Position numbers and translations under genes: made by a program. Shown in pieces: positions 2,312 to 34,332 of a stretch of DNA of 64,000 bases. Positions within the stretch are counted from its first letter, which is position 1. Every line of letters begins with the position of its first letter. This stretch comes from Nitrosopumilus adriaticus (GTDB taxonomy: Archaea > Thermoproteota > Nitrososphaeria > Nitrososphaerales > Nitrosopumilaceae), in NCBI RefSeq assembly GCF_000956175.1, contig NZ_CP011070.1:1172147-1236146 (forward strand). Direction: 5' to 3'. The notes under the pieces were generated by a model that saw only the letters and a program-made list of their open reading frames with translations, had not been told where the DNA came from and did not search any database.

Positions 2312-2644
2312 ATGGCAGCTAAACGAAAAGCAGCTCCAAAGAGAAAGGCAGCAACTAAACGCAAAGCCGCTCCAAAGAGAAAGGCAGCAAAAAGAACTGC
2401 AGCTAAAAAAGCAGCTCCAAAGAGAAAGGCAGCAACTAAACGCAAAGCCGCTCCAAAGAGAAAGGCAGCTCCAAAGAGAAAGGCAGCAACTAAACGCAAA
2501 GCCGCTCCAAAGAGAAAGGCAGCTCCAAAGAGAAAGGCAGCAACTAAACGCAAAGCCGCTCCAAAGAGAAAGGCAGCTCCAAAGAGAAAGGCAGCAACTA
2601 AACGCAAAGCCGCTCCAAAGAGAAAGGCAGCAAAAAGACGATAA
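2312..2644 (+). CDS. Lys/Arg/Ala-rich repeat protein, probable nucleic-acid-binding protein
   Basis: The 110-residue product is built almost only from Ala, Lys, Arg, Pro and Thr. Blocks of the type KRKAAP and KRKAAT repeat along its whole length, with one variant block (KRTAAKKAAP) near the N-terminus. There is no globular domain, cysteine or signal peptide. The composition matches eukaryotic histone H1 tails, chlamydial Hc-type proteins and the Lys/Ala tails of some bacterial HU proteins, so DNA or RNA binding and compaction is the natural guess. The start is the ATG of MAAKRKAAPK. Two long minus-strand frames across it are shadows of the repeat. Expression and binding are not shown by sequence. 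Confidence 0.8.
   Translation: MAAKRKAAPKRKAATKRKAAPKRKAAKRTAAKKAAPKRKAATKRKAAPKRKAAPKRKAATKRKAAPKRKAAPKRKAATKRKAAPKRKAAPKRKAATKRKAAPKRKAAKRR
2431..2640 (+). repeat. 54-bp tandem repeat inside the Lys/Arg/Ala gene
   Basis: The segment beginning AGCAACTAAACGCAAAGCC recurs at 2431, 2485, 2539 and 2593, a period of 54 bp (18 codons). The copies look nearly identical at the nucleotide level, including synonymous positions, which suggests recent expansion by slippage or unequal recombination rather than protein-level constraint alone. Copy number may vary between strains. Confidence 0.85.
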
Positions 2645-2930: not shown

Positions 2931-4589
2931 TCAATAAAGATAACTCATCAATTTAATTTGTTCTTCAGTAGAGATTACATTTTTGTTTGTCAAAATTTCT
3001 AGCAAGTCTTTGAACAATGCTTTTTGTTCAGAAGACATTCCACCGGCAGGACCTTTTTCTCCAGGTGGTCCAGGTGGACCTCTTGGACCGGCAGGACCTA
3101 CGGGTCCTTGTTCCCCTACGGGTCCTTGTTCACCAATAGAGCCTATTGGACCTGTAGGACCTCTTTCTCCTTGTGGTCCTTGAATTCCTTGTGGTCCTTG
3201 TGGACCTTTTTCTCCAGAAGGACCTGTAGTTCCCCGCTCACCTTGTGAACCTTGTGGACCTTGTGGACCTTTTTCTCCAGGAGCACCAATTGGACCTGTA
3301 GGACCTTTTTCTCCAACAGGTCCTATTGCACCTTTTTCTCCTTTTTCACCCTGAGGTCCAGGAACTCCTGTAAGACCCTTAGAACCTGCAGGACCTTGTG
3401 GACCTTGTGGACCTTTTTCTCCGATTGGACCTTCAACACCTTTGTTTCCTTTTTCTCCAACAGGGCCAGGTGGACCAATAGGTCCTTTATCGCCGGGTGG
3501 ACCATTTGGTCCTGTTAATCCTTTATCGCCAAGGGGTCCGGGCGGACCATTGGGTCCTTTATCACCAAGGGGTCCAGCTGGACCTTTTTCTCCAACAGGG
3601 CCAGAAGGACCTTGAAGACCTTTTTCTCCTTGTACTCCAGAAAGTCCGGTTGGGCCTTTATCGCCGGGTGGACCATTTGGTCCTGTTAATCCTTTATCGC
3701 CAGTTGGTCCTTGTTGACCCTTGTCTCCTTTTTCTCCAGGAGGGCCTCTTAATCCAGAAAGTCCTTTGTCACCAGTTGGTCCTGTAGAACCTGTTTCACC
3801 TTTGTCACCTATTGGTCCTTTTAATCCAGGTGGACCTTTGTCACCAACAGGGCCAGTAGCACCTTTGTCTCCTTTGTCTCCTGGAGGGCCAACAATTCCT
3901 TTGTCACCTTTGTCTCCTTTGTCACCAGTAGAACCCTTGTCACCGGTAACACCTTTGTCACCAGATAATCCTTTTTCGCCAGTTGGTCCTTTGTCACCAG
4001 TTGCTCCTTTGTCACCAACAGGGCCAGGCGGACCATCAGGTCCTTTATTTCCAACAGGTCCTTGTGGACCGGGAGGGCCAGGTGGACCTTTGTCACCAAC
4101 AGGGCCAGGCGGACCATCAGGTCCTTTATTTCCAGGCAAACCAGAGGTTCTTGAAGAACGAACATTAGATTTTGTTACTGATGATTCTTTTTTATTTTCA
4201 GATGCCATAGGTTTAGGTTCGTATTTAGATTCAGATTCATTTGCGTCAGATGAAGATGCCGAAGTTTGTTTTAATTTAATATCAAAAACAGAATGCAGTG
4301 AAGAGAATAGATCTACAACAACTATCCAAATGGTGTCAAGTGTTGCAATTGATGATGGAAGCGGATTATCAGGAGAACCAAGTTTCTCAGAAAACATCCC
4401 ATCATTAACTCTAAGATGGAAATTTCCTCTCCATAAAGAAGGGAATTTTTTAGAAAATAGAGCCTCATCAGAAGGTCTACTATCTGTGATTGAAATTTGA
4501 ACTTCATATACGCCTGATTGTTTAAAAGGAGACCGTCCCTGAACTTCTAATCTAGGTTGAGATGACACATTCGTTTCTGTATTTTTCAA
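2931..4589 (-). CDS. collagen-like Gly-X-Y repeat protein
   Basis: The 552-residue protein has three parts. Residues 1-110 form a likely beta-sandwich with a conserved-looking segment around [11 protein letters not shown]. Residues 110-149 are a Ser/Lys/Glu linker. Residues 150-517 are about 120 consecutive Gly-X-Y triplets, rich in GPPG, GDKG, GEKG and GPQG. The last 35 residues (from [10 protein letters not shown]) are helical and could be a trimerisation or capping domain. I see no signal peptide and no membrane segment. The start is TTG at 4589; the frame is closed by a stop just upstream and no ATG precedes the domain. In other collagen-like proteins the GPP and KGD/KGE patterns stabilise a triple helix. 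The role here is unknown. Confidence 0.88.
3039..4142 (-). repeat. collagen-like coding repeat (9-bp based)
   Basis: This stretch encodes the Gly-X-Y array. Units of 9, 18, 27 and 36 bases recur with small changes; for example the block encoding [16 protein letters not shown] appears twice near the N-terminal end. Several open frames on the opposite strand here are by-products of the periodic sequence. Such arrays are prone to length change. Confidence 0.85.
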
Positions 4590-4690
4590 GTATTTCTGTA
4601 TTTAGATGCTTGAATCAGAATATAGGTAAAAAATGAACATATTTTCAATTAAGGATGGTATTTATCTAGATAAAACGCCAATTTGAGCTA

Positions 4691-5833
4691 GTGAAGAAAC
4701 CTTTCGGGAAAAAATCAAAGGAAGTTAAAGAATCCTCTGTAAAAAAGGATAAAGTTGAAGAGACTAGCCTAGTTGATTCAGACTATAATCGTAAGAAATT
4801 ATTCAAAAAAGGAATCAATTTGATGGCAGATGAAAAATTGGAAGAGGCAATAGTTGTATTTGAGCAAGCATTACGAATTGAACCAGATAACATAGAGACT
4901 TTAATGAAATTAGGTTATGCAAGATTTCATATCGATGATCACGGTGAAGCATTAAAAGTATATGATAAAATTCTGGAGATAGATGTTACAAATCCAGAAG
5001 CATGGAATCTAAAAGGATTAGTACATTATGAACAAAAGAATTTTTCAAAAGCTCTTGATTCAGTTGATAAAGCAATTGAATCAGATCCAACATATGCAAT
5101 GGCATGGTATAACAAAGCATGTTTCTTGTCATTGCTAAATCAAGTACCAGAAGCACTAGAAGCACTAAAACGTTCAATTGAAATTGATGTTAAAAATGCA
5201 AGAAGATCAATTCGAGATAAAGATTTTGCAAATGTTAGAATTGAAGAAGGATTCAAAAGAATTCAAGAAGTAGTAGTTTTAGAATCAGTCAGACAAGGAT
5301 ATCACACATTGGGTGCCATAGTATGGACAACATTTCTAGATAAAGCTGATGCAGAATCATCTTTAAGGAAATTATTAGAAAAAGGATTAATCGTACAGAA
5401 TGAAAAACGTGACGGTCTAAGTAAAATTCCAATTTATGATCTTGCACCAAACATTGCAGAGAAAATGGGAAAAGAAAAGAAGGGATTATTTGGAATTACA
5501 AGAAAAACTTTACCAAAACCAGTAAAGAATTTGAAAGAGCTAAGCCATGCAATTCAATCAGTTAGAGAAGCAATAGAAGATGGAGATGTTGAAAAAACAA
5601 TAGAGGTGTTTGATATTTTCATAAACCCATCAAAATCAGGAGAACAAATGATAGAGAATTTCTTTGATGAACATCGAGAAATAAGATTATGGACAATCAG
5701 ACTAAAAGATAGAGGTGAAGATTATCTAATTGAAAATAAAGAAAAAATGTTAATCCTTTTTGACAACATAGAAGTAACAATAACTAAAAAGCTTAGAAAT
5801 GAAATTAATTATTCAGCAGATAAATCCCAATAA
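4691..5833 (+). CDS. TPR-repeat protein with C-terminal helical region
   Basis: The 380-residue product begins with a Lys/Glu/Ser-rich 30-residue tail. About four tetratricopeptide repeats follow (residues ~33-165), with clear TPR signatures such as AIVVFEQALRIEPDNIETL, ALKVYDKILEIDVTNPEAW and ALDSVDKAIESDPTYAMAW. The remaining part contains a segment (about 205-260) ending in KIPIYDLAPNIAEKMGKEKKG that could be a winged helix. No signal peptide or membrane span is present, so it should act in the cytoplasm as a protein-interaction scaffold. The start is GTG at 4691. It converges with the rhodanese gene and overlaps its 3' end by 25 bases. Confidence 0.82.
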   Translation: MKKPFGKKSKEVKESSVKKDKVEETSLVDSDYNRKKLFKKGINLMADEKLEEAIVVFEQALRIEPDNIETLMKLGYARFHIDDHGEALKVYDKILEIDVTNPEAWNLKGLVHYEQKNFSKALDSVDKAIESDPTYAMAWYNKACFLSLLNQVPEALEALKRSIEIDVKNARRSIRDKDFANVRIEEGFKRIQEVVVLESVRQGYHTLGAIVWTTFLDKADAESSLRKLLEKGLIVQNEKRDGLSKIPIYDLAPNIAEKMGKEKKGLFGITRKTLPKPVKNLKELSHAIQSVREAIEDGDVEKTIEVFDIFINPSKSGEQMIENFFDEHREIRLWTIRLKDRGEDYLIENKEKMLILFDNIEVTITKKLRNEINYSADKSQ

Positions 5834-33519: not shown

Positions 33520-33788
33520 CTGCAATCCAAAATTTCTATTTCAGGTTCACATGAATCATTAAATGAATCAATTTTTTCAACAATTATTTCACACAATTCA
33601 GGATCAAGTGATTTTTCATACGAGAAAATATCATTTAGTATCAACATATGTTGAATCCCACATGAATTTCCTGTAAAACTAAGGAGTACAAGAATGAATA
33701 AAATCAATAATGCAAATAGAAATAAATTTTTTAAACTAATTTTTTGAAATATCAATTTCCATTGTAGAAACATTTCGTTGTTTCCCAT
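33516..33788 (-). CDS. small membrane protein with extracellular cysteines
   Basis: The 90-codon frame holds one hydrophobic segment ([17 protein letters not shown]) followed by a 50-residue tail with four cysteines (NSCGIQH, ELCEII, DSCEPE, LDCS). Two disulfides outside the cell are plausible. It overlaps the 3' end of the Alba gene by 53 bases if the first ATG is used; later starts at 33773 (ATG) or 33755 (TTG) reduce the overlap and still keep the hydrophobic segment. Function unknown. Confidence 0.65.
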
Positions 33789-34332
33789 CTTGCGAAGTAA
33801 GAGAATCAGAAGAAATTCTTACATCACTAATAACATACCCAACTGAATCCATTCTTTTTACAATCATTTGAGAAACATCAACTGCTTGCGTAATTCTTTT
33901 ACCTCTAGCTTTAATCGTCACAGTTGGCCTAGTAGAAAGTTGAGTTAAAGTTGCAGAAACATATGTCATTATAGGTTTAGTACCAACAAAAATCACATCA
34001 CGCTCTTCAGAAGGAGGATGAGTTTCAGCAGCATCACTTTTTGGTTCTGGTGTTGGTTCAGGTTCTGGTGTTGGTTCAGGTTCTGGTGTTGGTTCAGGTT
34101 CTGGTGTTGGTTCAGGTTCTGGTGTTGGTTCAGGTTCTGGTGTTGGTTCAGGTTCTGGTGTTGGTTCAGGTTCTGGTGTTGGTTCAGGTTCTGGTGTTGG
34201 TTCAGGTTCTGGTGTTGGTTCAGGTTCTGGTGTTGGTTCAGGTTCTGGTGTTGGTTCAGGTTCAGATTTAGTTCTAGAGTCAAATTCGGATAAAATGTCT
34301 TCAGCATCTTTTGATTTTTTAGGGTCGCTCAA
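33736..34332 (-). CDS. Alba-family nucleic-acid-binding protein with Pro-Glu repeat tail
   Basis: The 198-residue protein ends in a complete Alba domain (residues ~112-198). It has [20 protein letters not shown], then [20 protein letters not shown] and the closing [17 protein letters not shown]. Alba proteins bind DNA and RNA and help shape archaeal chromatin. The N-terminal half is unusual: a short acidic leader, then about 12 copies of PEPTPE (residues ~23-102). This acidic, stiff tail has no counterpart in ordinary ~90-residue Alba. The Lys of the usual binding loop is retained (GTKP). The start is ATG at 34332. Confidence 0.92.
34038..34266 (-). repeat. 18-bp tandem repeat encoding PEPTPE
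   Basis: An 18-base unit (on the plus strand GGTTCTGGTGTTGGTTCA) is repeated about 12 times with no visible variation. It encodes the Pro-Glu-Pro-Thr-Pro-Glu tail of the Alba protein. Spacer-less units of this kind are a coding minisatellite and not a CRISPR array. Copy number is likely to vary. Confidence 0.9.

What the first reader, a model, noticed from the sequence alone, without database searches (positions are those of the whole stretch)
2931..4589. Collagen-like protein with about 120 uninterrupted Gly-X-Y triplets in an archaeon
Residues 150-517 are consecutive Gly-X-Y triplets rich in GPPG, GDKG and GEKG. They are flanked by an N-terminal beta-sandwich-like domain and a helical C-terminal cap that could trimerise. 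No signal peptide is visible. This layout, head domain plus collagen stalk plus cap, is that of fibrous or appendage-type proteins. KGD/KGE motifs can stabilise the triple helix without hydroxyproline.
Basis: partly seen in the sequence, partly recalled or inferred. Interest (0 to 1): 0.75.

Follow-up and report, generated by a model that had tools for sequence, protein, structure and literature searches.

The report
Core collagen-rod protein of ammonia-oxidising archaea
A marine ammonia-oxidising archaeon carries a true collagen-like protein, and it is not a curiosity of one strain: nearly every member of its family has one copy, always with the same head and tail, usually with a stalk of about 124 collagen triplets (about 100 nm if it forms a triple helix), and never with a secretion signal, which suggests an unstudied structural rod that may act inside the cell.

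Summary
The minus-strand ORF encodes 123 uninterrupted Gly-X-Y triplets; the true start is probably GTG at 4568 (545 aa). The array is under strong selection as protein: against the nearest relative, 123 Gly codons show 49 synonymous and 0 replacement differences. This is a single-copy core protein of Nitrosopumilaceae (head domain in 127 of 136 genomes, all 20 genera), found nowhere else in the class or phylum samples, and not in viral contigs. Orthologues share a beta-sandwich head (AlphaFold2 pLDDT 88, no confident structural match), an uninterrupted array and a near-invariant 34-residue tail. Array length is 122-125 triplets in 34 of 61 orthologues, including a genus whose X and Y residues have diverged to shuffle level. 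No orthologue has a signal peptide or LPXTG motif, although other collagens of the family and exported proteins in this window have signal peptides. The appendage reading is therefore not supported as stated. Best reading: a homotrimeric fixed-length rod, a spacer or tether between a head partner and a tail partner, more likely cytoplasmic than surface. Localisation and trimerisation are inferred. The name 'LPXTG-anchored collagen-like adhesin' fails its curated cut-off here.

The parts
2931..4568 (-).
   Evidence: start codon GTG in 27 loci and ATG in one; upstream extension closed by stops in several relatives
4269..4568 (-). N-terminal beta-sandwich head domain (about 100 aa), no Pfam, NCBIfam or PDB sequence relative
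   Evidence: AlphaFold2 pLDDT 88.2, pTM 0.79; invariant residues incl. W46, D86, F95; no family
4143..4268 (-). Variable, probably disordered Ser/Lys/Glu/Pro-rich linker
   Evidence: alignment A1 unconserved after column about 104; model pLDDT <50 at residues 103-108
3036..4142 (-). 123 uninterrupted Gly-X-Y triplets (369 aa; about 106 nm as a triple helix at 0.286 nm per residue)
2931..3035 (-). Near-invariant C-terminal tail of 34 aa ([34 protein letters not shown]) and stop codon, probably a short helical hairpin
   Evidence: mean column identity 92% over 23 sequences; found in 113 of 232 class genomes, all listed hits in the same family
4569..4609 (-). Conserved upstream block with TATA-like CTAAATAC, probable core promoter
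   Evidence: same block ahead of the start codon in the loci compared
4691..5833 (+). Divergently transcribed TPR protein; conserved neighbour, but older and wider than the collagen gene, so probably not part of it
   Evidence: synteny; TPR protein found order-wide

Best explanation
It is a single-copy core structural protein of Nitrosopumilaceae that most likely folds as a homotrimer. Three beta-sandwich heads sit at the N-terminus, a collagen triple helix of about 123-124 triplets forms a rigid rod of about 106 nm, and a conserved helical tail registers the three chains and/or docks to a partner. It works as a fixed-length spacer or tether between whatever the head binds and whatever the tail binds. 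Because it lacks any export signal in every orthologue, the rod more likely acts in the cytoplasm (scaffold or cytoskeleton-like element) than on the surface. Shown: the anatomy, conservation, selection on Gly, absence of export signals, family-wide distribution. Inferred: trimer, rod shape, cytoplasmic site, tether role.
For: Uninterrupted array and PF01391. Gly codons: 49 synonymous and 0 non-synonymous differences. Head in 127/136 family genomes and all 20 genera, only in this family in a phylum sample of 398. Tail 92% conserved, family-restricted. Array length 122-125 in 34 of 61 orthologues. The distant L087 and L042 have 124 triplets although their X/Y identity to the window equals that of shuffled arrays; the distant L096 has 18+106=124 split by one frameshift. 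No signal-peptide-like segment in 59 orthologues against clear ones in exported proteins of the window and in other collagens of the family. A signal-less 94-aa gene lies 0-38 bp downstream in eight loci from other genera. Strong synteny. A recognisable copy is kept in a 0.8-Mb genome (L097).
Against: No direct evidence of trimerisation, triple helix or location. Nearly all characterised prokaryotic collagen-like proteins are on surfaces, spores or virions (general knowledge). The best fold match of the head, not significant, is an adhesin domain (SgrA, E 0.28). Array length is not constant everywhere (84-120 and 139-163 in other members), which weakens a strict ruler. Non-classical export cannot be excluded from sequence. 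The hydrophobic moment of the tail helices is not significant.
Confidence: 0.45

Rival explanations
1. A surface fibre or matrix protein exported by a route without a classical signal peptide: heads outward or tail in the S-layer, acting in adhesion or envelope stabilisation.
For: Most known prokaryotic collagens are surface proteins. A 2026 paper reports an 'LPXTG-anchored collagen-like adhesin' up at low salinity and seen in the proteome of Ca. Nitrosotenuis chungbukensis MY2 (PMC13037477), possibly an orthologue. A proteome study of N. adriaticus, N. piranensis and N. maritimus finds putative structural proteins up under H2O2 (PMC6593220), possibly including this one. Weak head resemblance to the SgrA adhesin domain.
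Against: No signal peptide in 59 orthologues, no LPXTG. Family members that are clearly secreted collagens do carry signal peptides. The adhesin name rests on the collagen part only and fails the curated cut-offs in the window protein and five orthologues.
Confidence: 0.35
2. A virion, tail-fibre or particle component captured from a virus: signal-less collagen fibres with N-terminal heads are typical of phage tail fibres.
For: 558 phage records match the collagen stretch, several annotated as tail fibre or minor tail protein.
Against: The head has no phage relative. No structural phage genes nearby; synteny with housekeeping genes across genera. Near-universal single-copy core gene.
Confidence: 0.05
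3. A cytoplasmic protein in which the collagen-like array is only a flexible, low-complexity linker, not a triple helix.
For: No hydroxylase of family PF13640 in the genome. KGD/KGE stabilising pairs are few.
Against: Strict Gly at every third residue without an interruption in the orthologues whose full array was read, with only synonymous change at Gly. A plain linker would not need this.
Confidence: 0.1

Closest known systems
Streptococcal collagen-like proteins Scl1/Scl2 (NCBIfam SclA NF038330, SclB NF038329)
   Same: Globular N-terminal domain plus Gly-X-Y array; array matches by sequence
   Different: No signal peptide, no LPXTG; no match of the head; below curated cut-off (256 of 325 and 187 of 400 bits); conserved helical tail instead of a wall anchor
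Legionella collagen-like adhesin Lcl (NCBIfam NF046116)
   Same: Collagen array similarity
   Different: 234 of 500 bits; no signal peptide; different ends
Bacillus BclA exosporium protein (from general knowledge)
   Same: Signal-less collagen protein with a long stalk and a globular domain, assembled inside a cell
   Different: Globular domain is C-terminal and TNF-like in BclA; here it is an N-terminal beta-sandwich; archaea make no spores
Phage collagen-like tail fibres
   Same: Signal-less, collagen stalk with end domains (stretch matches)
   Different: No head or tail homology found, no phage neighbourhood
SgrA ligand-binding region of Enterococcus faecium (PDB 5fce)
   Same: Best fold-level resemblance of the head by probability and TM: 0.95 and 0.56
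   Different: E-value 0.28, 9% identity; no evidence of homology

Membership tests
Collagen-like repeat (PF01391) | Consecutive Gly-X-Y triplets above the curated score | tested here: met
   201.7 bits against 27.2; 123 triplets
Collagen-like repeat (PF01391) | Forms a trimeric triple helix | not testable with these tools
   Needs CD, SEC-MALS or a structure
Scl / LPXTG-anchored collagen-like adhesins (NF038329, NF038330) | Score above curated cut-off | tested here: not met
   256.2 of 325 and 187.3 of 400; five orthologues are below both as well
Scl / LPXTG-anchored collagen-like adhesins (NF038329, NF038330) | Signal peptide and C-terminal LPXTG | tested here: not met
   No hydrophobic N-terminal segment and no LPXTG-like motif in orthologues
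Legionella Lcl (NF046116) | Score above curated cut-off | tested here: not met
   233.8 of 500
Phage tail-fibre collagens | Homologous head or tail domain, or phage structural neighbourhood | tested here: not met
SgrA-type adhesin domain | Significant structural or sequence match of the head | tested here: inconclusive
   Foldseek E 0.28, TM 0.56; no sequence match in PDB
BclA-type exosporium collagens | N-terminal targeting motif and C-terminal TNF-like domain | not tested
   Only the absence of any Pfam domain besides Collagen was seen
Nitrosopumilaceae collagen-rod family (defined here) | Head domain + uninterrupted array + conserved SYLY-type tail, next to the GTPase and TPR genes | tested here: met

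The most novel reading that the evidence does not exclude
A family-wide intracellular collagen: a fixed-length (about 124-triplet, about 106 nm) cytoplasmic triple-helical rod that organises the interior or shape of the slender rod-shaped Nitrosopumilaceae, a core cytoskeleton-like use of collagen in a prokaryote.
Probability: 0.25. Interest if true: 0.9.

Novelty: new variant of a known kind. Interest (0 to 1): 0.6.

Why it matters
Nitrosopumilaceae are among the most abundant archaea on Earth, and their cell biology is poorly known. A near-universal, single-copy, strongly selected collagen protein with private head and tail domains and no export signal is an obvious candidate for a defining structural component of these cells. 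It would widen the known uses of collagen beyond extracellular, spore and virion structures, offer a natural collagen of defined length, and correct a misleading adhesin annotation that may already colour the reading of physiology data.

Tried and rejected
Pfam, NCBIfam, PHROGs and PDB sequence searches of head and tail: no relative. Viral contigs, phages and plasmids for the head: none or chance only. Foldseek of the head against PDB and viral models: nothing below E 0.001. Prolyl hydroxylase family PF13640 in the own genome: absent. The TPR neighbour as a dedicated partner: rejected, because it is order-wide. The downstream 94-aa gene as an obligatory partner: rejected, because it was absent from all six Nitrosopumilus genomes searched; its AlphaFold2 model is weak (pTM 0.42) with no useful fold match. 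A possible relation of the head to N-terminal domains of bacterial tail-fibre-like proteins was only a recollection and found no support here. Length steps of about 20 triplets looked suggestive, but the distribution and multiple separate indels do not support strict quantisation.

Full report
Observation. The minus-strand ORF at 2931-4589 is real and contains 123 consecutive Gly-X-Y triplets; 5000 shuffles of the same protein never exceed a run of 10. Pfam Collagen is far above its cut-off. The stretches before and after the array match nothing in Pfam. The start codon is probably the GTG at 4568: relatives keep GTG or, in one, ATG at that position, several have stop codons just upstream, and a conserved TATA-containing block precedes it. 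The protein is then 545 residues, 53.7 kDa; the array is nearly neutral overall (net charge +1).

Host. The window lies in a 1,803,090-base single-contig genome. Relatives retrieved by the head are labelled Nitrosopumilus, Nitrosarchaeum and other Thaumarchaeota, so it is a Nitrosopumilus; the size is what I recall for N. adriaticus, which I did not verify.

Not a single-strain oddity. With a single sequence the head is found in 31 of 36 other genomes of the genus, and with a profile in 127 of 136 genomes of the family, all 20 genera, one copy in all but one of them. Most of the misses are fragmented assemblies, where repeats tend to break contigs. In a phylum-wide sample of 398 genomes every hit is in this family; the tail behaves the same in 232 class genomes. 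Viral contigs gave none. Other families of the order do have collagen repeats, but not this protein.

Selection and length. Against the nearest relative, 123 Gly codons show 49 synonymous and no replacement differences, X positions 39 and 8, Y positions 25 and 16; five other pairs show the same zero at Gly. The long arrays read in full are uninterrupted. Of 61 distinct orthologues, 34 have 122-125 triplets; others run from 84 to 163. In L087 and L042, from a distant genus, the X/Y sequence is no more similar to the window than a shuffled array, yet the length is 124; in L096 a frameshift splits 18 and 106, again 124. I read this as constraint on length, with the caution that lineages are not independent and that several genera have settled on about 100-112.

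Domains. AlphaFold2 gives the head a confident beta-sandwich with two short helices (pLDDT 88.2, pTM 0.79). No PDB or viral fold matches significantly; the best by probability and TM is the ligand-binding region of SgrA (TM 0.56, E 0.28). The tail is the most conserved part (92% mean identity) and its sequence suggests a short helical hairpin, but the hydrophobic moment is not significant and trimerisation is inference.

Where it works. No orthologue of 59 has a signal-peptide-like segment and none has LPXTG, while exported proteins in the same window score 2.6-3.1 on the same measure against 0.01 for this protein. Other collagens in the family, such as a 2518-residue frame with 559 triplets (L184) and L185, do start with signal peptides. 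In eight loci from other genera a signal-less 94-residue gene follows 0-38 bp downstream. This favours a cytoplasmic site, but non-classical export remains open.

Neighbourhood. GTPase, collagen gene, divergent TPR protein, rhodanese, sulfite/nitrite-reductase-like gene and a Thi4-like gene largely keep their order across genera (names of the last three from sequence inspection). The TPR protein is order-wide, so the linkage may be only vertical inheritance.

Literature. I found no paper describing this protein family. A 2026 study reports an 'LPXTG-anchored collagen-like adhesin' expressed more at low salinity and detected in the proteome of Ca. Nitrosotenuis chungbukensis (PMC13037477). The name is that of the NCBIfam Scl models, which the window protein and five orthologues match through the repeat and below cut-off; whether that protein is this orthologue is unverified. 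A proteome study of three Nitrosopumilus strains reports putative structural proteins, related to proteins that interact with thrombospondins, up under H2O2 (PMC6593220); this may include it, unverified. The same 2026 paper states that Nitrosopumilaceae are rods and Nitrososphaeraceae cocci, which is the only, weak, basis for the cell-shape idea in the novel case.

Verdict. Confirmed observation, interpretation partly supported. A new, lineage-defining variant of prokaryotic collagen-like protein, most likely a fixed-length homotrimeric rod, more likely inside the cell than outside.

Noticed in passing
L184 (G197:C1:1248500-1259500), minus-strand frame: A 2518-residue secreted-type reading frame with 559 uninterrupted Gly-X-Y triplets, an N-terminal signal peptide and C-terminal FG-GAP-like repeats in a related genus; an exceptionally long collagen array.
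   Followed up: partly
window 2312-2644 (+): 110-residue Lys/Ala-rich protein (AAPKRKAATKRK repeats, 54-bp unit, 99% identical copies), histone-H1-tail-like, just downstream of the collagen gene and convergent with it.
   Followed up: no
window 33736-34332 (-), repeat 34043-34263: Alba-like protein with 12.3 perfect copies of an 18-bp repeat encoding EPTPEP in its N-terminal part.
   Followed up: no
L084, L085, L086, L087, L090, L092, L095, L100 (downstream of the collagen gene): Unknown 94-residue family (ending PPGQMFS) in an apparent operon with the collagen gene in other genera, not found in the six Nitrosopumilus genomes searched.
   Followed up: partly
L096 8895-10433: The collagen array is split by one frameshift (18 + 106 triplets); assembly error or pseudogene not decided.
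   Followed up: partly
L097 9153-10250: A 0.8-Mb genome keeps the head, a much shorter array (with an N run) and a diverged tail, suggesting the gene survives genome reduction.
   Followed up: partly
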